The translations under genes and the position numbers were made by a program. The notes beneath the pieces were generated by a model. It was not told where the DNA came from. It was given only the letters and a program-made list of their open reading frames with translations, and did no database searches. A stretch of DNA of 64,000 nucleotides from Ulota crispa (Eukaryota; Streptophyta; Bryopsida; Orthotrichales; Orthotrichaceae). This document shows, piece after piece, positions 10,117-64,000 of this stretch (position 1 is its first letter; each line of letters opens with the position of its first letter). The stretch lies in the NCBI GenBank assembly GCA_963920765.1, contig OY987250.1:18840409-18904408 (forward strand), in the 5' to 3' direction.

Positions 10117-10117
10117 A

Positions 10118-12159: not shown

Positions 12160-12222
12160 TTGAATTTTTTTTGAATTTTTTTTGAATTTTTTTGAGATTT
12201 ATGAATTTTATGAATTTTTTTT
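12160..12222 (+). repeat. (TTTTTGAA)n-like simple repeat
   Basis: Repeated TGAATTTTTTT units ending in a G run. Confidence 0.75.
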
Positions 12223-44420: not shown

Positions 44421-44474
44421 GTAGTGTATTATTGGATTCATATGAAAAAGTTACTTTAAAACATTTGTACTATT

Positions 44475-45566: not shown

Positions 45567-45816
45567 TCCTTTGACTATTTAACACTTTTAGCAAAAAAAA
45601 AACCCCCCACTTGAGCTAATTACAAGAATCACAAGAACAATTGTTACATAAGTTATTTCCATTGCAAAAGTGCTTTTATTTAATTAAAGAGGAATGGTGG
45701 CATGCCCATCAGTATGATAATTGGTTGCAAAAGAAACAAGATTTGAAAGAACAATTCATCAAACTCTAAAAAATAATAGAGAAATTCATGACACCAAGTT
45801 TTAAAAAAATTTCTCA

Positions 45817-46700
45817 CTAACCCTTAAAAGTCCATTGTCCCTCACAAGACAAAATCAGTTTTGGGCAAGCTTGTTCTACTGGGATTTTTGATAAGCTAGT
45901 TTGGGTTTTATTCTAAAATAGAGTTTTACAAGGGTTACATGTGAGTACCGCTTTTATTGAAGTTAGAGTTACATTCCAAAAGTTGTTGGTGCTTTATGGG
46001 TTATTTTTGTTCAAATGGGAAATTTGGGCAAATTATTTTCTATTGACTCTTTTCAAAAAAAAATGAAGGCATTACCCTTCATTGGGGTACATCAAGCAAT
46101 AGTGTACTAGATAAATACATTATCACTTATAATAAATATAGTAACATTTGATATTCAATAGTTCTTCTAGATTTGTTTGTTTGTTTTTTTTTCAATTGTC
46201 AACAAAAGTAAAGTTTTTCAATTGACTATTTGGATTTTTATAATTCAAAACCTAGCCCTCAAAATTTTGGTTTGCCATAGATCTCTATGTAGTGTGAATT
46301 TCAAGCTCACGCTTGCATGCAAGGCCTCATAAGGTGTGTTCAATGTCTTTGTTGGTTTGGAAAACATGAGGAAACATGCCTGACATGATGTAGAGCATGT
46401 TAGACAAGTCTCTTCAACACTCATGTTGCAAGTAATGGTCATAATGTATGATCAAAGGGGTTTTTTATTTTATTTTAGCAAAGGTTAAAAAACTATATAT
46501 TCAATTTTCAAGTTACCATAACTCTCAATTTATATGGCCAAACCTCATGAAATTTTCACCATGGCTTTTTGCTTAAGTTTAATGTAAGACACTAAAACTA
46601 GATTTGTAGAAGAAAAAAAATCTCTCTTAAAATTTCATATCCAAAAATGATAATTTCAAGTGTACATCAAGGAAAATGGCCTTGGTCCTATAGGAGTTAA
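45817..46700 (+). mobile_element. TTAA/CCCCTAAAGG family, decayed long copy
   Basis: Left CTAACCCTTAAAAGTCCATT, right GGTCCTATAGGAGTTAA. About 884 bp. Confidence 0.65.
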
Positions 46701-46865
46701 AATTGGTACAAAATCCCATTTGAACAACCAGTTTCTCCCATATCAATATCTATACTACCTATTATTGTCATAATATGAGCTAGTTTCATTCCTTGTGGAA
46801 TAAATTGTATAGTAATAAAATTGAGGAGGCAAATTTTCCATTTCCAACTAAAACATAATCATTTC

Positions 46866-47770
46866 CTACTCCTAAAGTTCTAAGGCCTTTTGACCACAAA
46901 AAACCATTCAAAATTGCCATCTTTATTGTAAAGAGAAAAAAATATTAAAATGTTTTTTTCATGTCCAACCGTAGGATCTCTTACCAAATTAGATTAAAAT
47001 TGTGTAGAAGAAATTTCAAAAACTTTGACTTTGCAGGTTGCAAGATGTTTGCATTTAAAATGAAGAAAACAATACTTTTGGCACATTGCTTGACTAGATT
47101 ATATAGCTTTTTATTTTAATCAACCAAAATTTTTGATTTACAAGTTTTGAAGTTCTAACTATTTGTATCAAAAAATTGATTTGAGAATCCAAGGAAAAAA
47201 ATTTAGAAAAAAACACTTAACTTTCACTTACAAAAATATTGTTGAATAGAAGAAGGCTCAAAATTGGAAAGAAAACAAAATTGTTAATAGCTCAAAGATG
47301 GAACTGAAACACACATATCTCAATGGTGAGATTGTTCTAGCAAGAAATCAAACTTTACAATACTTTTTTATCCAAAATTGTGAAATTGATATAAAAATGG
47401 ATCTTGCAAGTGATTTTTTCTAGAAAATGCTTTGATTGTCCATAATTTTTTCATGACAAATTCAAAAGGAACATATCAAAATTTCACATGTAAATAAAAA
47501 TACAATGTATAAGTAAAGAAAATTGAATGTTTCCATTTCAACTTATTCTAGAGATATTTCTTTGCTTTTTGAACTAAGAAAGGAGTTTTTGTGCCATAGC
47601 TTTTGCTCCTTAGCACCAATTGAAATAAATACTGTATTTCCAAAAAGCTAATGCAATTTTCTATCTTCAAAAAAAAAAAGCTAAAAAAACTGCAATGAAT
47701 ATTGTAACTGTAAATGCTTGCCCAAAATCCATTTTGTTCCTTGCAATGACAATGGGACGTTAGGAGTTAA
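46866..47770 (+). mobile_element. TTAA/CCCCTAAAGG family, decayed long copy
   Basis: Right end GGGACGTTAGGAGTTAA is clear. The left end (CTACTCCTAAAGTTC) is eroded. The right 60 bp resemble the end at 20464. Confidence 0.5.
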
Positions 47771-49300
47771 ACAAAAGCACCTAGTTCTCCTTTAGGAGCT
47801 TCTACTCTAGGATAATGCTCTTGTTTAGGTAGACCTTCCATCTTAATTCTCTTAGTTATAGGTTTGTTCACAATAAATTAGTTGCTCCTTGTGAAGCAAT
47901 TTGGGGAGATGTGTTTGTAATGCAATGTTTTTCACACATTTTGTACACCAAATATGACATTCATTATAATAGTGTTATAACTTTCATAGTGTCACTAGCA
48001 CTAAAATTGTTTGTTACAATATATGGTATCACTTATACTATTATATGTGAAATTATTATTTTTTTTAAAAACATTAACACTATTTTGTGTGAATTGGTGA
48101 GAATGACTGAAATTCTTGTAAATTTTCAAAATTCACTTGTTACCATTTTCATGTGATATTTATCATGAATCCAATAAAAAGTATATCAAACTTGAAATCT
48201 AGCTTAAAAATTGGTATAAGTTTGTAAATATAATGCAAGATTTCCATTCACTAAAATTTAAAACACACAAGATTAGGCAAGCAATGTTACATACAATTCA
48301 TGGTGGATTGTGAATATCTTTTGAGAGTAAGATTGTTGATTTTCCAACACACACCCTACAAAACATCACTCAATATACAATTATATGCTAGTCAAAACTT
48401 GAAAATATTATACAATAGGGATTCACTATTCAAAAGTGAGTTTCCAAACTTTGGCCATGAATTTGAAAGGCATTTCTTCATAATTAAGTAGCTTTGTAAT
48501 ATCAATCCATAATATACTTTTAAAAGCCTAATTATATTTTGATAAAAGACCCAACGTTTTGATACAAACATACGTATAAAAGTGAGGTTAAACTCTTCCA
48601 AGAAATTTTAGAAGCGATGCTTCACAAATTTTGGAAACTTTTGAACATAGAGTATTTATAATCTATTATACATTGTTGGATTATAACATGTGTAGCAAAG
48701 CATAAATTAATTCAAAATATCAAAATTTGACAATCTAGTGGATGATCATAACAACTTAAGTTCCATTCCATAAATTATAATAAATAAACACAATGTATGA
48801 AACGGGTGCTCTATGATGTCAAGATCTTAATAATTGATAATGCTTGTAGTTGGCATAAACGTCCTAAGTTCTTTGAAAATTCCATTACAATCTTTAGTCC
48901 ATTCAAACGCCTTGTCATTCTTATCATGTAAATTTGAAAATAAAGTTGCATTTTTAGAGGAAAAAAATTTAAACTATAGATAGTAGTTAGTGCACTTTAT
49001 AAACTATTTTATAAACTAATTAGTTTGTAAAACCTTCTATTTTGTTATGACTTTAATCTTTGTTCAATTAATTCTAATTTTATCTTTGTGCAATACAAGT
49101 TTTTAGAGTTCTAGCTTTTACTAACTATAGCTATTTTTTCACATTGGCCATTGACTTTTGTATTCTAAAATCAAGAAAATTAAATGTTTAATTTTTTCCA
49201 TGATCTTGTTAATTTACGAACAGTATTTACTATCTATATGAGTTACTATGCATTCACTCAAGCTTTTACAAATAAAACTAAAGATGTGGAAGAGCATTCC
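47771..49300. other. AT-rich non-coding DNA up to the composition boundary
   Basis: No gene or repeat recognised. The sequence is very AT-rich and stops abruptly at about 49.3 kb. Confidence 0.4.
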
Positions 49301-51200
49301 CTCAAGGCTTGCCGCAACCAAACTCACAAGGATCCTCAGGAAAGGCGCGGCCACTTGACCTGATTGGTTCTTGCAAGGGCCAACTGTGTTCTATGGTGGC
49401 CGCTGCGTCCTGTACTAGTACAATCAAAACGTGTGAGTGGTGGTGGTAGGCGTCTCGAGGGGTGCATGAGGTGCACGGTTTGCGCTCTTGCAACCAAAAG
49501 CTGCTGGTCGTTCATCACTTTGCATTGCACCTACCAGTTTAAGTGCGCCGCTATTATTGCAGATCCTTGAGGCGTGCGTGCGGTGGTGCTGACCGCATTC
49601 TAGGTGGTATTGTGTTGCACCTTGCTTGCGGGGTTTCACGAGGTGCCATTTGGAAGAGGTGTTGTCGTGGACTTGTCGCTGGGTTCTTTTGGATGCCGTG
49701 AGGCGCGTGTGCAGTGGACATTTTCTTGTGCAAACTAGGTTGGTATCCTGTCGTGCCCTAGTTTTGAGGTTTCATGGGATATTGCTCAGGCGGGGCATCA
49801 TTGTGTGCTTGTCAATCATTTTCCAGTGGTCAGCGCGCTAGTGGAGCATTGGTCTTGATTGCTGGTCGGTAGCTTCTTGTGGCATCATAGAGGACATGGC
49901 CAAAAGCAATACTTAGATCGGACCGGGAGCGGGTTGCGCCTCGTGGGGTGCCGCTTGTCAACATGTGGTGGTGGTGGTGAACTAGTCTTGTCTCCTATAT
50001 GTGAGTTTGTCGCCCTTGCTGGTGGCGGAGGCTAATTGTTAGTCTTATGCCGATATGCAACTAATTGCGCAGCCGGAGCTATCTGAGCCGCTTTCCTTTT
50101 CATGCAAGAGGCAATGCTTGCGGTGGCTTGGCGCACGCGCCTCCTAGACCTCCTAAAAATGGAGGCTAGCTAGGCACCGTGGTGACAAGTCACATTGCGG
50201 GAGTGCAGCTCCTCCCTTTTAGTTGCCATTAAGAATGCATTGATTGAACTGAGTCAAGGTGGGAACATGACAAGTAGCGAGCGCGAGGATCATTCATGTC
50301 CAAACGCAAGGGAATGTGGTGGAATATTGCGCGTGCTTTGCTGTCGCAGGCTGAAGTGCGCGAGGTCTTGCCCGTGCCATCTGGACAATGAAGCACGCCA
50401 TACTCCCTCTTTGGAGGGGTGCGCGCTGCTGAAGGAGATAATGATTGGGACCACTTCTTACAGGGCCTCTCACAGTTGGCGCGTGACGGCGCGGATGTTA
50501 GCCCACATTGCTCTCCTGACCCTCTACATCAGGCACGTTGCTAGGCGTGGCCAATGTGGTGTGAAAGTTGCGGTTTTTGTGTTGCAACAGGTGGGAGGCT
50601 TAGGGGACACGCCCGCTTATGCGCAACTCTAGATCCCAAAACCAAGATTGGTGTGAGCCACAGATGAGCCAGGCGCTTATTGGTTGTGAGACCTTGTGAC
50701 GCGGAGGGTACTCAACAAGAGTGCGTTGGAAGACTGGCTTTGGTGGTGGAGCGGGTTGAGTCAAGACGCTTAGTAAGACCATATCACACTTTTTATACCA
50801 TTGCACTTCTTAGAGGGCCCCTTGAGATTGGCATGCAATGCGGATGCGAGAGCTCGCGCCGCTCTCTTGACCTTCTACATTAGGCCACGCCGCCCGGTGT
50901 GGTGTAAAAAGCCACAATCACCTTGTTGCTTTGGGTGGGAGCAACAATCTGGCGTGGACTCTAGGTCCTTGTGACATGGACGGTTCTTGAACAGAGAGGG
51001 CTTTGCAAGTTCGGGCAGAGCGGGTCAGCCCGGGGTGTTGATTGAGCAAGGTGATTGCACGCTACGGTCAACCCTCTAGCCAAATGTAAGAATATACATG
51101 GTGAGTACAAGTTGTACAAATAATTAGTATGCCGCATATTTAGGCGCATCCAGGGGTTCTTTGTCAATGACTCTGCAAAGGTGCCAGAGAATTTGGCGTA
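49300..51200. other. GC- and CpG-rich block without a recognised gene
   Basis: A sharp rise in GC relative to the flanking 30%-like DNA, with many intact CG dinucleotides (GGCGCGGCC, GCGCGAGG, GCGCACGCGCC). Several open frames occur on both strands, as expected from composition, and none resembles a known protein. A diverged tandem pair (50440-50600 and 50790-50950) lies inside. It could be a promoter or CpG-rich end region of the block that follows, or a degenerate repeat. Confidence 0.5.
50440..50950 (+). repeat. Diverged tandem duplication, period about 351 bp
   Basis: CTCTCCTGACCCTCTACATC (50511) against CTCTCTTGACCTTCTACAT (50862), then CACGTTGCTAGGCGTGG against CACGCCGCCCGGTGTGG, and GGTGGGAGGC against GGTGGGAGCA. 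Confidence 0.6.
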
Positions 51201-51512
51201 CTAATAGTTTCCTGCAAAAGCACCAAAAGATGCGGCATATTGCCGGTTGTACAATATGTACAATGACAAAGGGGCCAATGCTTCAGTGGTGGTTTCAAGA
51301 TTTCATTCTATGTGTTTCATTTTCATGTGAAGGTTTGTTATTTTGTATGCATATTATTTTCACTTTAGCTCTTTGTAATGGCAAATCAAAGGCTCATAGA
51401 ATGACGTGCCAGATTCAAGAGGAAGGGACCTTGTGGGAGGGCCGAGGATTATAATGCAGTGCCGGAGAGTCTAAGAGATGGAGAGGCAGAGAGGCAACGG
51501 AAATGTTGACAT

Positions 51513-52154
51513 TTGCTAAGGGAGAGAGAAGAAGCAGCGAGGTTGCTTGCTATTGCTCAAGATGAATTGGAGGTAGAAAGGGAGATGTCTTCACAAGAAC
51601 TTTCACTAGTTGTGTCCAAAATTGTGGATTTTTTCATAATAAAGATGCAAGGTTGTTGGACGGCATCTTCTAGGTTGAAGATTATGGAACATTTTTTGGA
51701 AAATGAATGTATATCTCCATTTCTTCCTGAGTATTATCCTTGTGGGCAAGATGCCAAGGCTCAATTTGAATTCCTCAAGAACTATCACTTGGAGTTGGAC
51801 GCTGTGAAGGGTGTTCAATCGGCAGATATGCATGCTAGGAAGGCTATTCTCTTAGATGCAGCTATATCTGCTTTTGTGATAAATACCAAAGCTTTGTTAC
51901 GGGTTTTGAAAGTTCGTCCATCCAATTTAAGAGTGGCTATAACCCGCCAAAGTAGTGTGCGTCTGCTTGGAACACCATTTGCACTTGCAAGACTCAAAAA
52001 GAGACCTGGTTTTCCTGACAAGATTAAAGACCTTGTTACAAAGTGGTGGACAAAAGAGACCCGTGTAAGCTCCAATTGGAAGCAAATTGTACAAAAATGG
52101 ATAAGCCCTAAAATGTATCAGAAGCATTGCACTCACTATTTGCTTGAAAGCCAA
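51513..52154 (+). CDS. 5' exon of a DDE/RNase H-like (transposase-type) gene
   Basis: Seen: 214 open codons. It starts Glu/Arg-rich (REREEAARLLAIAQDELEVE) and continues to WWTKETRVSSNWKQIVQKW and KHCTHYLLESQ, ending exactly at a GT donor. The next exon continues in phase 0 after an intron of 391 bp (GTATTG ... CTTGCAG). The block TRVS-x-N/P...H-x-HxL-x2-SQ ahead of FE-x-LKPYFVR is, from memory, the usual N-terminal arrangement in uncharacterised plant proteins of this DDE-like family, which have animal relatives. The function of this part (DNA binding?) is not known. The true start is upstream or at a non-ATG reading here, since a stop precedes 51513. Confidence is good that it is coding and moderate for the family. 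Confidence 0.6.
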
Positions 52155-52545
52155 GTATTGTCAATGGACTGCAGTATGGCAGCACCCTATTCAACCTTTC
52201 CTTTGTCATGTATACAATCCTAGATATTCTTTCCGTCCGTCATATACACTACGCATGCCCACACCTTCATACATTTCCTTTGGCTATTTGATGGCTTGTA
52301 TGTGTACTTTGCAATACGTTTATTGTAACAATTTAAGTACATATTGTAGTAATAAATGTACAGTACATAACATTTGCACAGTAGGTCTAAAGATTGAGTA
52401 TTTAGAGTGCCTTTTCTGTCGGATGTTTGCTTTGTTGAAGGTTTGTACTCCACATGTTCTGCTGCGTATTAGGGTTTAGGGTATATGGACATGGTTTGTA
52501 CTTGTCAATACCTCTTTTTCATGAAATTTTATTGCATTCTTGCAG
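52155..52545 (+). other. Intron of the DDE-like gene
   Basis: GTATTG at the 5' edge and TTCTTGCAG at the 3' edge, phase 0, 391 bp. It contains several TGTAC words. Confidence 0.6.
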
Positions 52546-53419
52546 ACTGCATTCTTCCATTGGTTTAAGGTTGCCCACCAAGACGTGCCAATCAAACAGA
52601 GAGCCTTTGAGAAACTAAAGCCTTATTTTGTTAGAGCTTGCAACGAGAGGAATGTTTGTTGTTGCAGATAGCACGTAGAGATTGGCATGCTCAAGGAGGG
52701 ATTCAATCAGATTTGGGATGGCACAAGGGGAATCCACATCTTAGAAAATTGCTAATGCGTGTGTGATTTGTATCTCTTTTGTGTGGAAGAGTTGAGGTGC
52801 AACACACATATGAAGACATATGCAAGTACAACAACTCTGTGGCAGGAGATTGTCTGCCCTAAGCCTGAAAATGAAGAGTGGCATGTTTTGCAATGTGTCA
52901 TGGGTACGTGTGGAAGTTGTGGTATTTCAAAGCTTTCGATTTACCCTCTTGAATCATCATCATCTTCAAACGTCACTTGGAAGTGTTTTGAGAGTGAAAT
53001 CATTGGGGTGACGCAAGATGGGAAGTCCCGGAAGAGGGTTGTTGAGGTATATAAAGACACCTCTCCACGAGTGTTCTTTGAATACTTCAAGTCTAAATTG
53101 CCCCAATTCGTGAAGCACAGCTTCATTGCAAGGTGGCAGGACAACCACTGCAAGCGTTCTATGCAAAGTTTGGGCAAAGATGTGATTTTATCACATATCG
53201 ATTTTGCCAAGAACTACATTTTTGAGATTCAAAACTAGATTCAGAGCATGTACTAGTGCTCAATGGAGATCAGTATCCTTGTGCACATCACGTATTGTTT
53301 CAAACTTGATAGAGACATGGTGAAGGAATCGCATTTCTACATAACTAATGACAAAAAGCATGAGTCTCTTTTCGTACAGCATTGCTTGATGCAACATTGG
53401 CAATGGCTAGAGTCTCAAG
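52546..53419 (+). pseudogene. Central exon of the DDE-like gene, interrupted by in-frame stops
   Basis: One continuous frame reads KQRAFEKLKPYFVR, NERNVCCC, then a Cys-containing region (CVMGTCGSCG), then FVKHSFIARWQDNHCKRS, HIDFAKNYIFEIQN and HFYITNDKKHESLFVQHCL. Known pattern: relatives show FE-x-LKPYFVR...R-x-CCC-x2-H, a Cys-rich region, [MI]DFAEN[YF], then Q[SN]-x-HW and a D-x2-HD/E segment. The Asp of DFAEN is probably the first catalytic acid of an RNase H fold. Here the Glu of that motif is Lys. The frame is broken four times (three TAG, one TAA) with no frameshift, which suggests recent decay. The exon ends at CAAG/GTGTAC. Confidence 0.6.
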
Positions 53420-53611
53420 GTGTACACGATAGTGCCCTTACCTCTATATTTCTTGTCTTCCTCTCTAATTTAAACTACATGCCTAGCTCTTACAAGAGTA
53501 TTTTGTGGCTAGCATGGAGAATCTAAACTTTATGCTATGATGCTAGCTTATGTACTGCACTTAGAAACGGTATGGTTGAATTGATTGTTGTCCAGGCATT
53601 GTAATACAAGG

Positions 53612-54631
53612 ATTTGACCGAAGCACCACATAGTGTGGTCCAATGGTTGTGCAAGCCAGTTCAAAGGTGCCCAAGCATTCTATTTTATGTCCAAATATCT
53701 CAATGCCACCAATGGTTGTATTATGAACTGGAACTTTTTTGGAACAGGTCATGGGAAGGGAGAGAGGGACGGGGCTAGTGCTATTGTGAAGCATGCACTT
53801 AGGCAGTCTCAATTACACAACACATGGAGGAGGATGCAAAATGCTAACAACGCAGTGTCTTTCTTGAACAAAACAATGAGAGGGACAGTCCATACTAACT
53901 TTGAGAAGATAGGCATCAAGGAAGTGAAGAGATTCTTTTGGGAAATCCCCAAGGACATTATGATGGATTATAGCTATCACTGTGAAACCGTTCAAGGTTC
54001 CCAAGCATTACTTTCAATTTACTCGTTTGCTGTTGCAAACCCAACGCAACTGTTTGTTTGCAAACTCTCATGCTTTTGTGCCTATTGTCTAGACGGCAAT
54101 TTTGCAAATTGTGTGAATAGATCTCACGTTGAAAATTGGGATCTCGTGAAACTAAAACCGTATGATCTCCAAGATGTGGCTAACCACATGACACACCACA
54201 ATGTCCCAAATGACAAGGATTGGGAGGAAGCCATCGAAGGCAAGGGATTTAGAGATTTGATTCGGCCAAGTGACAACTTTGTTGTCCCTGTTGTGGAGGG
54301 CGATATTGAAGGTGTGGAGTTTTATATTCTGCAATGCACAAGGGGGAAGTATGAGATTCAGCAAGGTTTCAAATGCGCTTAGGGCCCTGATTTTGAAGCT
54401 GGAGACTTCATCTTACAAGGGACTTATTATCAAAAGTAGAACAGTGGATGTGTATTTTTGAGCAACTCTCAACCAGCCCATATTGATACACATCTTGTGG
54501 TGCATGGTAAATTTGCTATGATTCCAAAGCCAGGCAAGAAAAAAGGTGGGGAGGTTACCTACGACATAAGCAAAGACAATATCGACACTATTAGGGCTTA
54601 GTTACATTGGTTCAGGGAGGAAGAGGACTAA
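53612..54631 (+). pseudogene. 3' exon of the DDE-like gene (WSNGCASQFKG / GHGKGERDG)
   Basis: Reads PKHHIVWSNGCASQFKGAQA, then NWNFFGTGHGKGERDGASAI-VKHALRQ, then an intact frame of about 250 codons and a tail with HLVVHGKFAMIPKPGKKKGG, ending EEED-TAA at 54629-54631. Relatives carry [FW]SDG-x-xSQ[FY]K and FFxTGHGKGxxDGxGAxVKR. The Asp of SDG and the acid after HGKG are the likely second and third metal ligands. Here SDG is SNG, so the second ligand is lost if that reading is right. Three further TAG interrupt the tail. The junction with the previous exon is one base out of phase with the obvious acceptors. It is probably an inactive copy of a DNA-transposon-type gene. Confidence 0.62.
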
Positions 54632-55248
54632 AAATGATTTAGGGTGACTTTATTTTTAATATACATCCATTACTTGGAATACTTTAACTGCAGTAGTCTC
54701 TTTACGCATGTTGTTTTGTAATTTGAAAAAATGCCGCTTTCATTTGGTGCTTCTTTGTTGAATCTATACTTAGGTATACTCATTTGTATTCTATTATGCT
54801 TTTTTTGTGTTGAAGCGGTTTCTTCAATGTACAATACCATACTCTTGTACTATATTATTAATTGTTCAAAGATGGAATGAGCTGCACAATTCATCCATTA
54901 TGTAAGCATTATATTCCAAAACCCAAAACTTACATCATTGTATAATGGCATTCTCCTTATATAGTTACTTCATTTTGTACAATTTCATATCCCATGTACA
55001 AATTTGTACTTGGCTACTTCTGTCTGCACAATGTACTGACCCATTGTACTTTCCAAATGATCTTTGAAGGTGCGTTAATGGTACTTGGATTGACCTTTAA
55101 GTTGTAGGCTCAAATTTTGGAACGTTGTCAGCAAACACTCATTGTGAATTGGGCGGCATATGGAATTGCCAACACTTCGTTGCCTTTGGCAGTTCTTTTG
55201 TTTCAGTGGTTTGTAAGAGACGTGTAGAGGTTTTTTTGTTTTTTTCTG
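54632..55248. other. Intergenic DNA rich in GTAC words
   Basis: No exon seen. It contains many TTGTAC and GTACAA words, among them the palindrome GTACAAATTTGTAC (about 54996). Confidence 0.5.
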
Positions 55249-55626
55249 TTGTGTTGCTCTTGTGTTTTTTGTGCAATGTCTAACCCTCCATTCCCAAAGT
55301 CTCCACTAGTTCAACAATGTAGCATGGATTATTTTCCTTTTCGTAGCTCTAGGCTTATTCAACAATGCATCATGCGCTACTTTTCATTGTGTAGTACTAG
55401 ACGTCATTCCTTGGCCAAAGTAAACAATCATTTTGATTCTTCAGTTACTTCCTTATATAGTTTTGTCTCAAAAACAACAACGTCAAAGCAAGGAAACATT
55501 GCGTACTATCTAGGACTTTGTAGCACTAGAACTACTATTGTCAAAAGCAGTGAGGCATTGTTTGAGCGAGCAATGGAGATAGAAGGCCCTACACTCTCTT
55601 TTGAGTTGCTGAACCAGAGTCTGTGA
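55249..55626 (+). CDS. Hypothetical exon, Ser/Cys-rich, internally repetitive
   Basis: An open stretch of 125 codons with a loosely repeated motif (VQQCSMDYFPFRSSR, IQQCIMRYFSLCSTRR, YYLGLCSTR). It is followed by a possible donor AAG/GTTTGT. No family is recognised. It follows the DDE-like gene on the same strand. It may be an exon of an unrelated or captured gene, or chance. Confidence 0.25.
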   Translation: MCCSCVFCAMSNPPFPKSPLVQQCSMDYFPFRSSRLIQQCIMRYFSLCSTRRHSLAKVNNHFDSSVTSLYSFVSKTTTSKQGNIAYYLGLCSTRTTIVKSSEALFERAMEIEGPTLSFELLNQSL

Positions 55627-55786
55627 AGGTTTGTATTCACAATTCCTATTACTTCCATTTCACTTTGATTTCAACTTGCTGTTTGACATAATTTAAGGAC
55701 AAGGAATTAGGAGAAGTTTTCAATTATAATGTAATGCCCACATCCTAGTACTAATTGACACCTTGCTTTTGGTTTGTTCATTGTAG

Positions 55787-55913
55787 GAATCTCAAAATGG
55801 TTCCTTCCAAGGGTCAAATTGAAGGCATCATTGGCGCTGTGTTTGATTGCAATTTCCAATTGATTGCGGCAATTCTAGATTTCGTTTGCTCATGGCATAG
55901 TCAACAAGTTTAG
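55787..55913 (+). CDS. Possible short exon
   Basis: After a good acceptor (TTTGTTCATTGTAG) a frame reads MVPSKGQIEGIIGAVFDCNF and ILDFVCSWHSQQV, then TAG. No family recognised. Confidence 0.2.
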
Positions 55914-57031
55914 CTCTTGTCTTGCTCTCCGTTTTTCCATAGCCTTGCCCATGACAACATAATTGAGATATGTACTTCATTCTAATACACTGATTATTAT
56001 CTTTCTATGTTATACAGATTGTAAACATTCATTGCATTGAATTATGTTCAGCTCTAGTGTAGAATGGTCATAGATTTACTGTCCTAATTCAATGGGATGA
56101 AAAGCTATTAGTATTTAGAACTGAGCGTATTGTTTTGATTTAGTTGTTTCCTTGAGGTAGTATAATAGTGGTTTCAAATTTCAAGCGTTTACCCTCTATG
56201 CAATGGGGGGATGGAGTTCAGATTCATGACATACAATTTGTGATCTCACTATGTAAATTTTTCATTTCTTTGTACATCATTAGTGTTTGTAATGGTTCAT
56301 GTACTACTCTTATTATGAGAGGTATGTCATTGTAACAAGACAACTGCATTTGCATTGATAGTGGTAATTGAAATGAATGTTTGTAAAGTGTTGCACTACC
56401 ATTTTATAGTTCCAAGGGTACAAACTGTACTACCTTGAACCGAGGTTCAAGATTTAGAATTGTTGAGTTACTTATACTTTAGAAATTGTAGTGTTTCTAG
56501 TGTATGTAGTAGTACAACTGCATTTGTTTCGATAACAATAACCTAACAAATGTTAGTACATTGTTGCAGTACCACCTTATGGTATCATTAGTACAAATTG
56601 TACATTGTAACCCATATTCATGTTTTAAAATTGTTGAATTACATTTAGTTCAAAAATTGCATAATTTGTAATGTTTGTAATTACATGTTGTACTTTTGAT
56701 GTTTACAATAGTACAAGTCAATCCTAATGGAACAATCATCTTTGATTTAAATCAATAACAGTTGTACTACCAATACAAAACACTAAATATGGAGTACCAA
56801 AACGAGATCTACCTTTTCCTATACGTTTAGTTGGACTTTATGTACTATCTCTATTGTTGACAGCATTTGCATTGAGGTCATGGATTGGAGGCATTTAATA
56901 TTTATTAAGCTATGTACAATCTATATGGATCTGCTGGATGCAGTTGTTTTTGTTCCCCGACATTGAGCCTTGAGTCAAAATAAGTAGACTAATGTTCCTA
57001 AGTACTCCTACAATGGTGAAAGGACCCATCA
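55914..57031. other. Intergenic or intronic DNA, very rich in GTAC words
   Basis: From 56270 to 56830 there are many copies of AGTAC, GTACAA or TTGTAC, several as near-palindromes (AGTACAAATTGTACATT). No exon identified. Confidence 0.5.
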
Positions 57032-57340
57032 ATGCCAAAGTACAAGAGCAAACGTAAGTGCAAGAAACAGCTCACGCGCTTGCGAAAGTGCTTCAGCAAT
57101 GTCTGCAAGAGGTGGAGTTCACAATCCTTTTCCTTTGCAGATCCTCGGAGTGTGTGGTGTAAGTGGTACGGGAGGTCAGTTGCATGGGGTTTAGGGTCTT
57201 TTATAGTGCTAATCTTACATGATCATTTGTTTAAGTTTATTCCATAAGTAATTATTGTAGAACTTAGTACTGGATTATGCATGTTTGTAGTCTTATGATT
57301 GTTTCTAAATGTGTTTATTGCTGGGTGGATTTGTGGGCAG

Positions 57341-57484
57341 AGGCTTCTAAGCAAAACACAGTTCACCGTCTTCTATTATCTTGTCTTGCACGACAAGGCT
57401 CACAAACATTGGAATGTAGTGCACAATGAGAAGGATGTGGCCACGCTGTTGCATTGTCTAGATACTGGATATTACTTGACATAG
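57341..57484 (+). CDS. Probable exon of an unidentified gene
   Basis: A good acceptor (TGGATTTGTGGGCAG) is followed by a frame reading RLLSKTQFTVFYYLVLHDKA, HKHWNVVHNEKDVATLLHC and LDTGYYLT, then TAG, after which the frame continues for about 27 codons. The sequence has normal protein character and slightly resembles a beta-barrel chromatin-reader segment, but I cannot assign it. A weaker open stretch at 57032-57247 may belong to the same gene. Confidence 0.35.
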   Translation, partial: RLLSKTQFTVFYYLVLHDKAHKHWNVVHNEKDVATLLHCLDTGYYLT

Positions 57485-58320
57485 AAGTATTTTTTGGCAA
57501 ATGAGGACTTATATCCATCCATTGCCCAAAGTTTAGGTTTTAGTATTAATATTACCATTGTGATATGAATTATTCAAAATATTGAATTGGTAGTGTGGGA
57601 TTTCTTTCCTCGGGTGATTCTGGACATAATGTGACATTGCTTGTTACAAAAACATTTGGCTCTTGATTTGTAATGTTAATTGCTTTGAATATTGAGAATT
57701 TGTGGCGTATTGCAAGAGTTTAATGCTAATGATTACCAAGTAGGTCATACTATCAATATAGGTTCAAATTGATATAGCAACGACACAGGGAGAATGTGGT
57801 ACAAGATGGTCGTGCAAAAACACTAGCGTTTACAGCTACCATTCAGAAGCAGTTGTACATAGGTGGTTCTTTCTTGTATAGTACAAGTTTTAACTAGCTT
57901 TAGTAAAGTCAATTACTAGAGTCCATGCACTTTATGCACTAATGGTCTTTCACCTCATAATCAAATGTGCGTATGAATATATATTACTCAGAAGTTTTTG
58001 TTCTCCTTGTTTGCAACACATGCATGTTTCCTTCCATGTGTATAATTTTATACCCTGTGTACATCTCCGTACTTTGCATACAATTCTGTACTTTGCGTAC
58101 AATTTTGTACAAAATATACAAACTTTACAAATAAACATAGTTCAATCTTCCTTGCATGATCGTTCTGTCTTTCAACATAGTTCTCTTTCAGTACTAACAT
58201 GTCTTGGGTGGACGTTTAGACATTTGCGACTTTGGAAAACAGTACTGTAGCAAGAGTGTCATAATGCCAGATACAACCCAACACCAATTAGTTCACTGAT
58301 ACATCCACTAAGTAAATCCA
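57485..58320. other. Intergenic DNA between convergent gene groups
   Basis: Separates plus-strand models from minus-strand models. It holds a dense GTAC/TACAA run at 58040-58140. No exon seen. Confidence 0.45.
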
Positions 58321-58332
58321 TCACTTTCCACA

Positions 58333-58579
58333 CTATGCTAAGAAGTCATTGATTTGATGAATTGGGGGATTTCCTTTGTCAAGGCTGTGAGTGCTACCAC
58401 ACTTACAATGAAATGGTACTATAGCATCTAAAATTGGCATTTCAAAACTACATCCATAATCCCATGTCAACTCTACCAATGGTGGAATATCTTGCCGTGC
58501 AAAAAATGCAACATGGTAAATTCTTGGGTCTTTGCTGCTCATTCTGATGGGCACATCAACAAGGTTTGCATCTTCACAT
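58333..58579 (-). CDS. SUVR-like histone-lysine methyltransferase, 3' exon (end of SET and post-SET)
   Basis: Minus strand, following an acceptor TTTTCTAG. The reading begins at the C of the NHRC motif and runs CEDANLVDVPIRM, IYHVAFFARQDIPPL, ELTWDYG and FHCKCGS, ending NDFLA-TAG. Known: plant SUVR proteins have NHRC-x-DANL-x-[ED]IP...YYH-x-AFF...ELTWDYG...F-x-C-x-CGS-x2-C. ELTWDYG holds the catalytic-site Tyr, and the post-SET Cys residues bind a structural zinc with the Cys of NHRC. Here the third post-SET Cys is Ser (CGSTHS), so zinc binding may be weakened. SET enzymes of this class methylate histone H3 Lys9 in the nucleus. The splice joins AAC-CAC-AG to A-TGT in frame to give NHRC exactly. 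Confidence 0.82.
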
Positions 58580-58704
58580 CTAGAAAACAAGCAACTACAC
58601 GTAATGAAATTCAAAACATCACATGTATCATGAACTGTAAATTAATACTATATGAATCACAACAACTGCAATTCACAAATAACAAGTATAATTATGGCAA
58701 ATAC
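58580..58704 (-). other. Intron inside the SET domain
   Basis: 125 bp, GTATTTG ... TTTTCTAG on the minus strand. Removing it restores the conserved NHR-CEDANL junction, which is strong evidence for the model. Confidence 0.82.
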
Positions 58705-59048
58705 CTGTGGTTTAGGAATCTACTGACATTTTCCCATAAAGTGTTGTCTATGCAGAGTGCCGCATCATCAGTCACCACCAGCTCGGATTTCCAATTTGCG
58801 TCAAGTGCTAGCGTGAATGCCTCAGATTTTCCCAATTTTGAAGAAGCCCTCCACTGCATTAGTTCCTCATTTGTAACTATTTCTCCTACAAACCCAAAGA
58901 CAAAACTCCCCTTCCAAACGAGCTTCTTCCCTCGCAATCCCCATCCCTTTTCTCTAGTCCAAAAAACCTCAATGGAGATTTGCAATCCTTTTTTCATCAC
59001 CCTATTTCCTCCGCAGATGCAAGAGTCCTTGCACTCTTGAAGGAAAAC
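58705..59048 (-). CDS. SUVR-like histone-lysine methyltransferase, central exon (end of pre-SET, first half of SET)
   Basis: Reads VFLQECKDSCICGGNRVMKK from the acceptor ATATCAATCAG, then ISIEVFWTREKGWGLRGKKL, GSFVFGFVGEIVTNEEL, LDANWKSE, DDAALCIDNTLWENVSRFLNH. Known: in SUVR1/2/4-type enzymes FI-x-EC...C-x-C...CGNRVVQ-x-G closes the zinc-binding pre-SET domain, KGWGLR and E[FY]VGEI form the S-adenosylmethionine pocket, and N[IV][SA]RF[LI]NHR is the other half of that pocket. All are present and open for 115 codons, so this part has been under selection until recently. The neighbouring coiled-coil gene is on the same strand upstream. Confidence 0.82.
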
Positions 59049-59284
59049 CTGATTGATATGGCCAGGGCATGCAGAACCTTACTCTTGAGAACATTGTATA
59101 TTGCAAAATAAAGTATCTTCCTTCAAAACATACCATCTGTACAAATCAGTATCTAGTCATTATCCAATGTAAAACCAGTATACAATCAATACATAATATA
59201 CATGTTTACACATAGAAATCTAAAATTGTATGAGCGGAAAGGTAGAAAATATTGCATAATGCAAAGGCATAAAAATGTACTCAC

Positions 59285-59586
59285 CTATTTGTTTAGAATG
59301 GAACTTTGTAGATGACCTCATTTGTCACACGCCAAGCACAAGCACAAAATGTGATTCACCCCACAACAGCATTCATGCCCATGACAAGTACAGTCACCAC
59401 ATTGGCAAGAAGTGGGGAAATCTATTCCTTTTTAGCCAGCTTCTCAGATGTTCTTGTAGATAGCTTGGACAGAGAACAATAAGTAAATTCTTCTAAAGCA
59501 TGGAATCCCATACTTGGCATACACACCTTGATTGGAAATTTTTCCAACCCATTGGACAAGTTGTGTGCATCATACCACAGTTGTCC
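59285..59586 (-). pseudogene. Probable 5' pre-SET exon of the SUVR-like gene, frame inconsistent
   Basis: Bounded by a good acceptor (TGTCTATAG at 59587) and a near-perfect donor (AATAG/GTGAGT). One frame gives WYDAHNLSNGLEKFPIKV, LEEFTYC and STRTSEKLAKK, which fit the segment before a SUVR pre-SET domain. A second frame gives DFPTSCQCGDCTCHGHECCC, a pre-SET-like Cys cluster. The first frame resumes with FCACAWRVTNEVIYKV. The segments are not in one frame, and stops occur near the end. Either small indels have broken the gene here, or the true splicing differs from my model. Family signal is moderate. Confidence 0.5.
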
Positions 59587-59888
59587 CTATAGACAAGAAG
59601 ACAACCTCAAAAGCAATTAAGCTCCAAATGGCCGAGATTTTTTTCTACATGAATGAAACAACAAACTATACATTAAAAGAAGCAAGGAGTTGGGTTTCCA
59701 GCTCATATCACTGATGCTAATTTGCTCACTTTGGGTCTTTTTTGCTTGGGCCCTTCCTCGTGTCTTTATCCTTTGGCTTCCCCGGGTCTCTATCCTTCTA
59801 CTTCTCCATGTCTTTATCTTTTCACTTCTTCCCTCTAAAACCAACAAAAAAACAAATATGTCATATAATTGTAGATGATGATCACATC

Positions 59889-60566
59889 TTATAAGCATAA
59901 GAAGACTACACAAAGACAAACCACTAAGACAGTATAGTACCCGGATCTTGTTGGGTATTGTGGTTCAGCAACCTCATCTTCCCCTCCTCCAATGGTGCCT
60001 TCTGCATTCAATCCCCCTCCAACGACTCTGTTGTGCACGTTTTTTATGATATGACGACCTTTTCTTCTTTGAACCGTACCGGCACTAGGGCATTGTCCTT
60101 CTGCAACTCCACCAGTACTAGGACCTTGTCCCCCTCCAACGGCTCTGTTGTGCACGTTTTTTATGATATGACGACCTTTTCTTCTTTGAACCGTACCGGC
60201 ACTAGGGCATTGTCCTTCTGCAACTCCACCAGTACTAGGACCTTGTCCCCCTCCAACTCCGCCAGTGGTTTTGTCATCAACACTGCTTGTGCCGACTATG
60301 GTTTCTTCAACACCCCCGTCACCGGCCGCTAGTAAGCACTGGGCTGCTTGTTCAATTGTGGCTATAAGCACTCCCTCTTTGCCAGGGTTTTCCTTACTAA
60401 CGCAGCGGCCACCATCCTTGTCCGTCTTGTCACCACCATCTTGGTCCTTGTTGTTGATTTCTACTTGTTGATTGATATGACTTACGCATTCCACACACAA
60501 CAAATTGTACAAATTTGTACACAAAACACATTTCCTTGATCTACTTCTACATTTCACAGAAAACAC
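59889..60566 (-). CDS. Gly-rich open frame with a 117-bp coding repeat, possibly the 5' end of the SUVR-like gene
   Basis: An ATG-started frame of 225 codons. It has a Cys-containing start (MFSVKCRSRSRKCVLCTN), an Asp/Gly/Lys-rich stretch, then a 39-residue unit present twice plus a partial third, each with GGQGPSTGGVAEGQCPSAGT and RRKGRHIIKNVHNR. It ends in a hydrophobic tail (VLVVCLCVVFLCL). No domain is recognised. RRKGRHIIKN is basic and could bind nucleic acid or act as a nuclear signal, but this is speculation. A donor-like site (CCGG/GTACTATAC) before the hydrophobic tail suggests the tail is intron sequence and that the frame splices into the SET gene downstream. It could also be a separate gene. 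Confidence 0.4.
   Translation of the reverse strand: MFSVKCRSRSRKCVLCTNLYNLLCVECVSHINQQVEINNKDQDGGDKTDKDGGRCVSKENPGKEGVLIATIEQAAQCLLAAGDGGVEETIVGTSSVDDKTTGGVGGGQGPSTGGVAEGQCPSAGTVQRRKGRHIIKNVHNRAVGGGQGPSTGGVAEGQCPSAGTVQRRKGRHIIKNVHNRVVGGGLNAEGTIGGGEDEVAEPQYPTRSGYYTVLVVCLCVVFLCL
60021..60254 (-). repeat. Coding minisatellite, 2 x 117 bp
   Basis: Two nearly identical 117-bp units (60021-60137 and 60138-60254; GACTC against GGCTC near the start), with part of a third beyond 60254. Because 117 is a multiple of three, the frame is kept. The near-identity implies recent duplication or conversion. Confidence 0.9.
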
Positions 60567-60775
60567 ATTTTAGAATTTTGTACAACTTCATACAAATTTT
60601 GATTATTTTGTACAAATATAAAACACTTGTACAAAACCCACTAACAAAAATTCGTCTACCCATTATGGCTCTACATCCCAAATTGAACACATTCATGTAA
60701 TTATTCACATTTTCACATTTGACACATTCCGTGAAGATGTAATACCTATCAAATATAGCATAAATTTATTAAGCT

Positions 60776-60845
60776 TCACGTAGAGATCTTGATCTATGTT
60801 TCTTCCTTGAACACTCCATCCATCCCAAGAGACACACGTACATCC
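60776..60845 (-). CDS. Coiled-coil/RING-like gene, last exon (tentative)
   Basis: Acceptor GATTCTAG; in phase with the previous exon it reads DVRVSLGMDGVFKEET, then TAG at 60794-60796 and TGA at 60776-60778. If TAG is the true stop the coding part ends at 60794. Another frame stays open to a donor-like AG/GTATTAC, so this end is uncertain. Confidence 0.4.
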
Positions 60846-60967
60846 CTAGAATCAGACATCAGAAAATCTATAGAAAACGTATTCCACATTTGCATAACCA
60901 ATAATTAATGAAAATACAAAGATATTATAAAAAATACTACAACTTAGGAAAGGTTCAAGAATCATAC

Positions 60968-61156
60968 CTAGAAATGTGTTGGCTTGCATTTTGCATTGCT
61001 TTAGCGTATTCCTCACAACCAATACAGAAGGAGTCTAAACAATCCTACACCACCCATTGATCTTGTCCCTCTCCGGTAGTGCCTACAGTGAATGGAAGTG
61101 ACTCTACTGTACTTTGTAATTCTCCACTCATTGAATTGATCGAGAGTGCCTCCATC
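60968..61156 (-). pseudogene. Coiled-coil/RING-like gene, third exon
   Basis: Acceptor GTGTGTAG and donor TCTAG/GTATGA, 189 bp, in phase with its neighbours. Reads MEALSINSMSGELQSTVESL, TGEGQDQWVV, one TAG, then DCLDSFCIGCEEYAKAMQNA. No known domain. Confidence 0.5.
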
Positions 61157-61268
61157 CTACACACCACAACAATACACTATAAACCTAGTACCTAATGTAG
61201 ATTTATGTTTACAGTTAAGAAGTACCAAAATATTTCATTAAATAGAATGATAGATTTGAAAATAGTAC

Positions 61269-61449
61269 CTTGTTGTTGTTTGTGTAGGACATTCGGCTAG
61301 TCCTAATAACGCTGCTTGTGTATGTTCTTCTACCCAAAGCACAAAACCCACATCGATCATAGTGTGTTCTTCATGAACCACCTATTCATTGCCACCTAAT
61401 CTTGCGGCAAAATTTCCTCTCTTTCTTTCTCCATCCAAGGAACCAAGCC
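61269..61449 (-). pseudogene. Coiled-coil/RING-like gene, second exon
   Basis: Acceptor TTTGGATGCAG, donor AAG/GTACTA, 181 bp. Reads LGSLDGERKRGNFAARLGGN, one TAG after E, then VVHEEHTMIDVGFVLWVEEH and TQAALLGLAECPTQTTT. It joins its neighbours in phase on both sides (G/GG and AG/G), which supports the exon structure despite the stop. Confidence 0.55.
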
Positions 61450-62073
61450 CTGCATCCAAACACAATCTTCAATTGCTTACAACATGTTTGTATCTAGGTT
61501 GGATATGAACAAAAGAACATGACACCTATCATAGTACAAAAGGTATAATCTTGTACAATCTATACATACACGTCATACAAAATATACAATCTAGGTAAGA
61601 ACAAAATGTATTGCAAATAACACAACAATTGCGTAATTATTGAGAACACCCAAACTTATACAAACTAACCAAATTATACTATAGGTACAACAATGAGGAC
61701 TCTATTGAACATGAAGTACAAATAAGGGAACCCAATAACGCTTGCGGCTAACAACGTATCTGAAACAGTACCAACCTTTACAAACTTGAAATTCTTAAAT
61801 GAAGACGATACAATTGCAAGGCTTGTACTAAACATCAAGTACAATTTCATACTCTCCAAGCACCCTTTTGGTAACAATATACACAAAAATTTAAATTTTG
61901 TTACAAAAGTAATATACCCTAATACAAACACTACAACTACTGATATAAAAACTGCCTTTTCCCATCTTTAGTAGCATAAACCATCTAAATCCAAGAAAAC
62001 TAGAAAAGGCTATTAGAATATGTACCAATCAATACAAATGTGTACAAAGCATGAAGAAGTTGTAGAGTATTAC

Positions 62074-63392
62074 CTTCTTTGTCAATGGCTGTTCTACATT
62101 GCTAGATGGATGTACGTAATTTTGCTGCTGCATCAGTCTTGGCTGCTAATCCTCCAATGATAGCAGTGTTACATTGGGCCTTCAACTTTGTCCACTCTTC
62201 ACTCCCACCTCCAAGACGTCCACACCCACGAACACCCCTCCAACCAAAACTCATAATCCATTCAATGGGCTGAACTTGCTTGCAATCCAAAGCAGCGTAA
62301 TCTATGCCCTCAGTGAAGTTTACCAATGCACACTATGGGTGATACACATGTTTACATGCAGAGACAATCATCTCAGAATGGGGGAAGGGGAATCCGCAGA
62401 GGACGCACAAAGATTCTCCTCCACTGCCTATTTCCCCTGCAACATATACCAGAGGTAATAGTTGCAAATGAAACCCGCATGATGCACACCCCAGGTAAGC
62501 ATGCTCCTCCTTCAAAGCACAAACTTGCATCCGCATCTTCACAACTCGATTGCGCTCAAGCTTAAGAGTTTCCTCTAAGGTAGAGATGGACTTCTCCAAC
62601 TTCTTCACTTTTTTCTGAACGCCACATATTAAGTCGTTGTACGCGTCCACCTTCTCCCCTAACTTGAAGTCTACCATCCTAGTTGAGGTTGCTGTAAGTA
62701 ATTGCTTCTCATACACCTTTTGCTTGACTTTCATAATCTTTAGTACTCCCTTGTGATGATTCAGTCCCTCCACTTGCTTTTCCTTTGTTGTGTCAGCCTC
62801 TCGCTCAGCATCCAACTTAGCCTTGAGCTCTAAGTTCTCCACTGCCAACAACTGGCCCAAATACTCGAACCTAGAGTTGCAGTCTTCCTCCTCCAAAACC
62901 ATTTTGCCCATTGTGCTCCCCCTCCCTTTGTAAACCTCTGGCTAAAGCTCTCTCTTGTTGACGTGAAGTTTTTGCCAAGCTTGATGAGCCGCCTTTCTTG
63001 TCTCCTTTGCCCTTTCCTTCATGTTCTTCATCTTTTGCAATCGGATGACATTCCTCTCATGATTAGAATGTTGAGTCTTGTTTGTGGATTCCCCGTAAGC
63101 GGCCTAATTCACCGGCATATTTTTGTTTTCCAAAACAATCCCCCTAGCCATCTTGTGAAGAAGTAATGCACAAGGAACTCCTTGTTGATAGAGAGCTTGT
63201 AAGAGCTGTTTGATCCTCTTCTAAATCCTCTGCGACTTCACTTCCTTCCAATTGTAATGGTAGAGTCCATTCCTCTCCATCGGCTCTCCAAATAGAGAGA
63301 CACATTTGTCATCATCAATGGTTTGCCTTTCCATTTGGTTAGGCAATTTGGCAAGTGTCCTTTGTCCTTTTATCCATACTTGTTGACAAAAT
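62074..63392 (-). pseudogene. Coiled-coil protein with RING-like Cys/His cluster, main exon, several in-frame TAG
   Basis: One frame of about 440 codons with no frameshift. In order: WIKGQRTLAKLPNQMERQ, CVSLFGEPMERNGLYHYNW, QLLQALYQQGVPCALLLHKM, a basic helical region (QKMKNMKERAKETRKAAHQA), a long coiled coil (FEYLGQLLAVENLELKAKLD ... KKVKKLEKSISTLEETLKLE), then CASCGF, CVLCGFPFPHSEMIVSACKH and VYHP, and a Cys-poor tail (IEWIMSFGWRG). The pattern C-x2-C...C-x-H-x-YH-x2-C is that of RING-type zinc folds, which often act in ubiquitin ligation. The role here is unknown. The frame holds five TAG and no TAA or TGA. Donor AAAGAAG/GTAATA leads in phase into 61449. It may be a repeated, element-borne gene family. 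Confidence 0.55.
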
Positions 63393-63670
63393 CTGCTCTG
63401 GTGAGTGTTGGTGGTGGATTGGTGAGCTTCTCCAACTCTTTGTCAACAACCAACTCCAACCCATCCCCCTCCTAGCTGCCATTGCCCTCCTTGCCACAAT
63501 TGATGTTGCCGCCCCCCTTACTGCTGTCACTCCCCCCACTGCCCTTGGCCCCCTTGCTGCCCTTGCCCCCTTTGCTACTCTCGCCCTCCTTGTTTTCCTT
63601 GCCACTGTCCTTCTCAACATCTACGAGGGCTTGTTCTTCCACTACCTCCACCACAAGCCCCTTCTCCTAA
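63393..63670 (-). CDS. Gly/Ser/Lys-rich coding-like segment upstream of the coiled-coil gene
   Basis: In one minus-strand frame: VEEQALVDVEKDSGKENKEG, then SSKGGKGSKGAKGSGGSDSS and KGGGNINCGKEGNGS, one TAG, and ELVVDKELEKLTNPPPTLTR. It is a low-complexity, probably disordered segment. It is offset by one frame from the downstream exon, so either a small indel or an intron lies near 63390. Other frames over the same stretch are compositional shadows. Confidence 0.4.
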
Positions 63671-64000
63671 CTAGTAGTGCCACGTCTTTTTTCACCACGT
63701 AGATGGGATAGAAAATTGGCCCTCCGTGATTGTGCTCGCAATACCAAAACTATCCCTTTACCTTTGACCTTAGTCATTTCTTGCCCTAAAATTGTTTTGA
63801 GGCATTTGATTAGACCAAAAGGAAATTAATGAAAACATTACCTTGCAAATCTTAATTGTAAACCTAGCTATTTCTCTTGTAGAAGAAAAAAGCAATAGAG
63901 CGCTGCTATTTCACTGAAACCACCTACTGATTACAAGAAATTTGCGGTGACGGAGAGACAAAAAGCATTCAAGGTGCACTATGATATGTCTGAAACAAAT
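63671..64000. other. Non-coding or unassigned end of window
   Basis: No exon or repeat recognised. The block of minus-strand genes may continue past the window edge. Confidence 0.3.

What the first reader, a model, noticed from the sequence alone, without database searches (positions are those of the whole stretch)
49300..64000. Candidate large composite DNA element carrying a histone methyltransferase and a RING-like protein beside a DDE-like gene
A sharp change in composition at 49.3 kb opens a block that differs from the preceding 49 kb. It contains a transposase-type gene (plus strand), then a SUVR-like SET gene and a coiled-coil/RING-like gene (both minus strand). They share GTAC-rich intergenic DNA and, for two of them, the same kind of decay. 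DNA transposons that carry a complete SET-type H3K9 methyltransferase are not something I know as described. If this cluster recurs in the genome as a unit, it would be an element able to affect its own chromatin state. The ends were not found, so the unit is inferred from position and composition only; three independent neighbours remain possible.
Basis: inference. Interest (0 to 1): 0.75.

Follow-up and report, generated by a model that had tools for sequence, protein, structure and literature searches.

The report
Giant plant transposon carrying histone methyltransferase
This stretch holds most of the first half of a 24,000-base jumping DNA element of a land plant that carries, besides its own transposase, genes for a histone-marking enzyme and zinc-finger (RING-like) proteins, and the same gene trio recurs at dozens of places in the genome, so the element seems to carry its own tools for changing chromatin.

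Summary
The composite element is real, but its borders differ from the finding's. Comparison with an empty site on C2 places it at window 51,049 to 74,896 (10.9 kb past the window end): 23,848 bp, imperfect inverted ends, 4-bp target duplication AGCA. The GC-rich 49.3-51.05 kb block that prompted the finding is flank, present in the empty site. Five more units of 23.1-23.9 kb have both ends located. Genome-wide, 55 of 78 transposase loci have a SET gene convergent and downstream (random placement: mean 0.2, maximum 3 in 1000), and 51 of 78 have transposase, SET and RING in that order, including families with transposases roughly 30-50% identical. SET, coiled-coil/RING and a second RING gene show coding constraint. 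A diverged copy has an open exon with Pre-SET and SET above Pfam cut-offs, matching H3K9 methyltransferases. The transposase has a DDD-like motif; with 4-bp duplications this resembles Sola, but membership could not be tested. SET-bearing DNA transposons are already in print (HarbingerS, MuDR of oomycetes), so this is a new variant: plant, probably moss, with a RING partner. What the enzyme does for the element is inferred.

The parts
51049..64000 (.). Part of the element inside the window; the whole element is 51,049 to 74,896 in window numbering (23,848 bp; its last 10,896 bp lie in L009/L010)
   Evidence: empty site on C2 aligned to both flanks; boundaries repeated in other copies
51045..51048 (.). 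4-bp target-site duplication AGCA, left copy (right copy at 74,897-74,900 in window numbering)
   Evidence: single AGCA in the empty site
51049..51073 (+). Left terminal inverted repeat (imperfect); right partner at about 74,872-74,896
   Evidence: a right-end pattern with up to 3 mismatches has 13 matches in the genome and 0 when read backwards
51510..54412 (+). Transposase gene, decayed (in-frame stops; second acidic motif WSDG reads WSNG here)
   Evidence: dN/dS 0.18-0.28 for stretches 52756-53235 and 53618-54379 and 0.44-0.52 for 51510-52220, each against three copies; exon boundaries approximate
59321..59407 (-). Cys-rich, Pre-SET-like block of the SET gene
   Evidence: sequence reading and aligned copies; not recognised by a profile
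58695..59078 (-). SET gene, stretch with the N-terminal half of the SET domain, ending FLNH
   Evidence: Pfam SET 24.7 bits (cut-off 22.4); dN/dS 0.19-0.40 in 5 of 5 copies
58336..58605 (-). SET gene, stretch with the C-terminal half of SET (ELTWDYG) and post-SET-like CKCGS
   Evidence: Pfam SET 19.4 bits (below the cut-off, ORF 58336-58641); dN/dS 0.31-0.97
62336..63340 (-). Coiled-coil / RING-like gene (two coding stretches, 62336-62941 and 62981-63340)
   Evidence: dN/dS 0.18-0.44 in 5 of 5 copies for both stretches; matched by the further RING gene
49300..51048 (.). GC-rich flank, NOT part of the element
   Evidence: present in the empty site at C2 and, by DNA search, at C8:996686

Best explanation
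A large cut-and-paste-type DNA transposon family of a land plant (probably a moss) with inverted ends and 4-bp target duplications, whose core, long-inherited gene set is a DDD-type (RNase H-like, Sola-like) transposase, a SUV39/G9a-class histone H3K9 methyltransferase and one or two RING-type proteins. Shown: element borders, empty site, gene trio in fixed order at dozens of loci, coding constraint on the SET and RING genes, an open Pre-SET/SET exon in a diverged copy. Inferred: the transposase cuts the GGGT-type ends and inserts with a 4-bp stagger; the SET protein writes H3K9 methylation on chromatin, the RING protein acts as its ubiquitin-ligase or assembly partner; together they tune the chromatin of the element (or of competing elements and host genes) in a way that favours its long-term persistence, for example by moderating its own activity outside the germ line or by marking preferred insertion chromatin. 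The window copy itself is dead.
For: Empty site and ends; five more units with both ends, with target duplications AGCA/AGCA and CCTT/CCTT perfect, TGGA/TAGA and TTTA/TTCA with one mismatch. Fixed trio: 51 of 78 transposase loci have T> <SET <RING in order; 55 of 78 have a convergent SET (random mean 0.218, maximum 3 in 1000 trials; no such control was run for RING). dN/dS: transposase core 0.11-0.28, first SET stretch 0.19-0.40, coiled-coil/RING 0.18-0.44, further RING gene 0.28-0.48 for its three main stretches (two copies only), against 0.62-1.71 for seven non-coding controls. SET identity: L047 exon, Pre-SET 49.2 bits (cut-off 29.1), SET 35.1 (22.4), best PDB relative EHMT2 at 4.5e-23. Transposase core: of Foldseek's first 16 PDB matches 15 are chains of the RNase H superfamily as I recall it (Argonaute/PIWI, RNase H, resolvases) and one is reverse transcriptase p51; none is below 1e-3. 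C>T decay at CG (57 of 250) and CHG (73 of 354) against CHH (332 of 4378) fits DNA-methylated chromatin.
Against: No expression or chromatin data. No copy was shown to have all genes intact, so present activity is unproven. C8:20719871-20743313 shows no matching target duplication; the right end of the C6:7.42 Mb copy is not recognisable; the left end of the C3:3.52 Mb copy was not found in the stretch fetched. The second SET stretch is unconstrained against one copy (0.97 vs A6), the first transposase stretch is only weakly constrained (0.44-0.52), and the last Cys of post-SET is lost in the window copy. Ends of the diverged families were not mapped (one search found none). Constraint shows that the SET gene was useful, not for what. 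RING profiles stay below Pfam cut-offs. Transposase models are of low confidence (mean pLDDT 37 and 50).
Confidence: 0.68

Rival explanations
1. Anti-defence: the element's SUVR-like protein is a competitor of the host's H3K9/DNA-methylation silencing, or redirects it away, comparable in purpose to the transposon-encoded anti-silencing proteins of plants.
For: Constraint on SET; the decay pattern at CG/CHG suggests that copies are methylated; host-like SET loci without a transposase nearby exist at C1:30103190 and C1:31491655, so interplay with host enzymes is possible. Transposon-encoded control of silencing is cited in PMC12730594 (passages).
Against: Motifs recalled as catalytic (GxG, NH, WDY, CxC) are largely kept in the copies compared, which a pure decoy would not need.
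Confidence: 0.22
2. The SET and RING genes are passengers: host genes once captured, carried along without function.
For: Large elements can capture genes (general knowledge); many copies are decayed.
Against: Coding constraint against all five copies for both stretches of the coiled-coil/RING gene and the first SET stretch, and fixed order at 51 of 78 transposase loci across diverged families.
Confidence: 0.06
3. Independent neighbours in a repeat-rich chromosome end, not a unit.
For: The window lies about 230 kb from the end of C9, in a block shared with C2 and, by its left flank, with C7.
Against: Empty site spanning both borders and repeated units on C2, C3, C4, C8 and C11.
Confidence: 0.01
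4. The SET gene serves targeting: it or its partner marks or reads heterochromatin to steer insertion to silent DNA.
For: The transposon-borne protein is of the H3K9 class.
Against: No chromodomain or other reader appeared in the pieces scanned; insertion preference was not measured.
Confidence: 0.1

Closest known systems
HarbingerS (Harbinger clade encoding a SET histone lysine methyltransferase) and SET-bearing MuDR of oomycetes, Repbase Reports 2014, as cited in PMC12730594 (passages seen; the Reports themselves not seen)
   Same: DNA transposon carrying a SET methyltransferase gene beside its transposase
   Different: Other transposase superfamilies and host kingdom; here the target duplication is 4 bp, the unit is 23-24 kb, and RING-type genes belong to the recurring set. 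Whether HarbingerS carries a RING gene was not checked.
Sola superfamily (Sola1 named for Physcomitrella; PMC10741241 and PMC9033089, passages seen)
   Same: DDD-type motif, 4-bp target duplications, host outside the flowering plants (inferred); some Sola elements exceed 15 kb
   Different: SET and RING genes are not mentioned in the passages seen; no Sola sequence was at hand to compare
Fungal TET/JBP-bearing DNA transposons (KDZ, hAT, IS3EU and others; PMC12730594, passages including part of the abstract)
   Same: DNA transposons that carry a gene for a chromatin-mark enzyme
   Different: An enzyme acting on DNA methylation instead of an H3K9 methyltransferase; other transposases
SETMAR (SET + mariner fusion of primates; PDB 3bo5 hit; the rest recalled)
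   Same: SET domain linked with a transposase
   Different: A host gene fusion, not part of a mobile unit

Membership tests
TIR DNA transposon | terminal inverted repeats, target duplication, empty site | tested here: met
   empty site on C2; both ends found in 6 of 8 copies (the window copy plus 7 with both end windows fetched or before); TSD perfect in 3 of 6, one mismatch in 2 of 6, none in 1 of 6
Sola superfamily | 4-bp target-site duplication (PMC10741241 passage) | tested here: met
Sola superfamily | DDD catalytic triad on an RNase H-like fold | tested here: inconclusive
   D in HID(F/Y), SDG and GEWDG motifs across copies, with SNG in the window copy and in L029; fold models of low confidence, weak RNase H-superfamily matches
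Sola superfamily | sequence similarity to Sola1/2/3 transposases | not testable with these tools
   no Sola reference sequence held; no convincing Pfam, NCBIfam or PDB sequence match
HarbingerS / Harbinger | Harbinger-type DDE transposase and 3-bp target duplication (both recalled) | tested here: not met
   no Pfam transposase match (queries partly decayed); 4-bp duplication
MuDR / Mutator | 7-12 bp target duplication (PMC10741241 passage) | tested here: not met
   4 bp
SUV39-class H3K9 methyltransferase | Pre-SET and SET domains over curated cut-offs | tested here: met
   diverged copy L047; the window copy alone passes the SET cut-off in one stretch only
SUV39-class H3K9 methyltransferase | catalytic and post-SET motifs (NH, WDY, CxC; meanings recalled) | tested here: met
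   with losses in single copies; last post-SET Cys lost in the window copy
SUV39-class H3K9 methyltransferase | methylates H3K9 | not testable with these tools
   needs an enzyme assay
RING finger protein | RING profile over curated cut-off | tested here: inconclusive
   further RING gene: zf-RING_2 24.7 bits, cut-off 27.3; diverged copy 14.8 bits for the same model; no RING match for the window's own coiled-coil/RING gene; Cys/His spacing read by eye fits a RING-H2-like finger

The most novel reading that the evidence does not exclude
An entire transposon superfamily in plants outside the flowering plants is built on a three-gene core of transposase, H3K9 methyltransferase and RING ligase: a mobile, self-owned heterochromatin-writing module, in which the RING protein ubiquitinates histone H3 to stimulate the element's own methyltransferase (as the Clr4 complex does in fission yeast, recalled), letting the element set its own silencing level and spread silencing to neighbours or rivals.
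Probability: 0.2. Interest if true: 0.88.

Novelty: new variant of a known kind. Interest (0 to 1): 0.72.

Why it matters
Silencing of transposons by H3K9 methylation is a host defence. An old, multi-family transposon lineage that keeps its own H3K9-class methyltransferase under selection, in the same place beside a RING gene, suggests that the element gains from the mark. It makes a testable case for transposons that manage their own silencing, shows that SET-bearing DNA transposons are not confined to oomycetes, and warns that many SUVR-like genes in such genomes may belong to transposons.

Tried and rejected
ORF 59892-60569 (-), at first taken for a SET exon, shows no constraint (dN/dS 0.69-1.34) and is not counted as coding; 63342-63620 is doubtful (0.46-0.95), and so is a fourth stretch of the further RING gene (0.44 and 0.83). 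The palindromic insert at about 67.7-69.0 kb was set apart as a separate repeat. A search of viral contigs with the diverged transposase gave two weak 28-residue matches, not followed up; bacterial and archaeal genomes gave none. A simple search for paired ends in L029-L031 found none. Phase analysis of mismatches was superseded by dN/dS. The first co-location count (49 of 58 SET rows near a transposase row, all 49 convergent and downstream) was superseded. Literature searches: (nine); in the titles and abstract starts shown none described a plant SET-bearing Sola-like element, which says nothing about subscription papers or Repbase Reports. Passages of PMC4455052 and PMC9587614 were also looked at.

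Rows dropped before counts: one search used 72 of 112 transposase rows, 58 of 62 SET rows and 27 of 32 RING rows (second fragments of a locus left out). In one search the transposase rows were typed by hand (not recounted against 112 and 124), the SET rows plus four rows (its other rows lie at loci already listed or are upstream exons), and the RING rows without those repeating a listed locus; rows were then clustered within 3 kb, so an element with two RING genes counts as two RING loci. The random control was run for SET only and used an assumed length for C1 (38.5 Mb); the other lengths are those shown. In one search codons with gaps or stops in either copy were left out. The right ends of the C3:25.91 Mb and C8:20.72 Mb copies read TTTTATCC where others read TTTTACCC and were placed by that alignment.
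Full report
Where it is. The window is C9:18840409-18904408 of a 274.8-Mb assembly.

The unit. The window extended by 30 kb was compared with other places of the genome. One stretch at the start of C2 matches window 39,874-51,048 at 93% and, directly beyond, window-frame 74,897-82,162 at 85-89%, with only four bases (AGCA) shared. This is an empty site. The element is therefore 51,049-74,896, 23,848 bp, flanked by AGCA twice, with ends AGGTGATTGCACGCTACGG and, on the other strand, AGGTAAAAGCACACTATGG. The copy on C7 (right-end signature at C7:170214) has nearly the same 20 bases of left flank as the window copy, so these two probably descend from one insertion by duplication of the region.

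Other copies. Both end windows were available for seven further copies. Both ends were found for five of them: C2:6498304-6521685, C3:25912000-25935943, C4:11780928-11804066, C8:20719871-20743313 and C11:3763710-3787247, all 23.1-23.9 kb. Duplications, in that order: AGCA/AGCA, CCTT/CCTT, TGGA/TAGA, CATG/TCGT (no match) and TTTA/TTCA. For the C6:7.42 Mb copy the right end is not recognisable, and for C3:3.52 Mb the left end was not in the stretch fetched. A pattern for the right end, with up to three mismatches, has 13 matches in the genome and none when read backwards.

Genes. Plus strand: transposase, about 51.5-54.4 kb. Minus strand: SET gene 58.3-59.4 kb, coiled-coil/RING-like gene 62.3-63.3 kb, and beyond the window a further RING-type gene about 71.5-73.1 kb. 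Pairwise dN/dS: transposase stretches 52756-53235 and 53618-54379, 0.18-0.28, and 53257-53430, 0.11-0.21, but 0.44-0.52 for 51510-52220 (three copies each); first SET stretch 0.19-0.40 and second 0.31-0.97 (five copies); coiled-coil/RING stretches 0.18-0.44 (five copies); further RING gene 0.28-0.48 for three stretches and 0.44-0.83 for a fourth (two copies); seven non-coding controls 0.62-1.71. The extra genes were thus constrained, most of them about as strongly as the transposase.

Co-inheritance. Searches with stretches of the window copy and of diverged relatives were clustered into 78 transposase, 61 SET and 84 RING loci (an element with two RING genes counts twice). Of the 78, 56 have a SET locus within 15 kb and in 55 it is convergent and downstream; 63 have a RING locus within 20 kb, 61 convergent and downstream; 51 show transposase, SET, RING in that order; 11 stand alone. 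Random placement of the SET loci gives a mean of 0.218 and at most 3 in 1000 trials. Nine of 61 SET loci have no transposase within 15 kb: they include host-type genes with long open frames (C9:6933964, C10:6734639), host-like loci C1:30103190 and C1:31491655, and element-type SET genes whose transposase was not found, such as C6:22536295 and C6:21303589. The trio spans families whose transposases share roughly 30-50% identity, so the association looks old. The searches score only the best candidates, so counts are lower bounds.

What the SET protein is. Exon L047:3519-4247 of a diverged copy is open over 243 codons and scores 49.2 bits for Pre-SET and 35.1 for SET, both over Pfam's cut-offs; the transposase of the same copy has stops. 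Its best PDB relatives are EHMT2/G9a (4.5e-23) and EHMT1, then SETMAR, Clr4 and SUV39H2. Alignment of copies largely keeps NH, WDY and CKCG motifs. Similarity to plant SUVR proteins in particular is recalled, not tested. The window's SET stretch is 46% and 42% identical to the two host-like loci on C1 over 92 and 106 residues, about as much as to the SET genes of diverged elements, so descent of all element SET genes from one capture is not proved.

What the transposase is. No convincing Pfam, NCBIfam or PDB sequence match. Conserved acidic motifs HID(F/Y), SDG and GEWDG suggest a DDD triad; the window copy and L029 read SNG at the second. Two fold models are of low confidence (mean pLDDT 37 and 50); the strand/helix order fits RNase H, and 15 of Foldseek's first 16 matches are chains that I recall as RNase H superfamily, none below E 1e-3. 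DDD plus 4-bp duplications is what PMC10741241 gives for Sola, which is known from Physcomitrella (passages seen).

Decay. At sites where two other copies agree, C>T change (both strands) on the window copy's side affected 57 of 250 CG, 73 of 354 CHG and 332 of 4378 CHH sites, as expected for long DNA methylation in CG and CHG contexts. The copy is dead.

How it may work. Shown: a mobile unit, a recurring trio, constraint. Inferred: the SET protein writes H3K9 methylation, the RING protein partners with it, and the pair tunes the chromatin of the element or of its rivals. Rival readings are anti-silencing by competition and targeting of insertion. Known relatives: SET genes in HarbingerS and MuDR transposons of oomycetes (PMC12730594, passages) and TET/JBP genes in fungal transposons. 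The present case adds a plant host, another transposase lineage and a RING partner.

Noticed in passing
window-frame 67720-69017 (L009 about 3720-5017): Nested 1.17-kb near-perfect palindrome (95% self-complementary) inside the element, absent from the two copies on C6 compared; related palindromes occur at other places (C7:16489113, C4:16115171, C6:8932457 and others): a foldback-type repeat family.
   Followed up: partly
window 39874-51048 and the right flank to 82162 (window numbering): Large duplicated block shared with the start of C2 (without the element) and, judged by 20 bases of left flank, with the region near the start of C7 (with the element at the same site), which suggests exchange among chromosome ends.
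   Followed up: partly
window 49300-51048: GC-rich (about 54%) 1.7-kb segment in AT-rich surroundings, with 88% identical matches at C2:9832 and C8:996686; nature unknown.
   Followed up: no
window 36405-36797: Tandem array with a 16-bp period, seen as stepped self-matches.
   Followed up: no
window 45175-45554, 42416-43049, 35757-36165: Palindromic repeats, some related to one another and to places in other element copies, probably foldback or MITE-like repeats.
   Followed up: no
window 10001-13000: Stretch with raised G+C and strong GC skew (up to 0.37) and only one open frame of 120 residues or more nearby, which is of low complexity.
   Followed up: no
L048, L049 (viral collection): Two contigs of 17-18 kb with a weak 28-residue match to the diverged transposase.
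   Followed up: no
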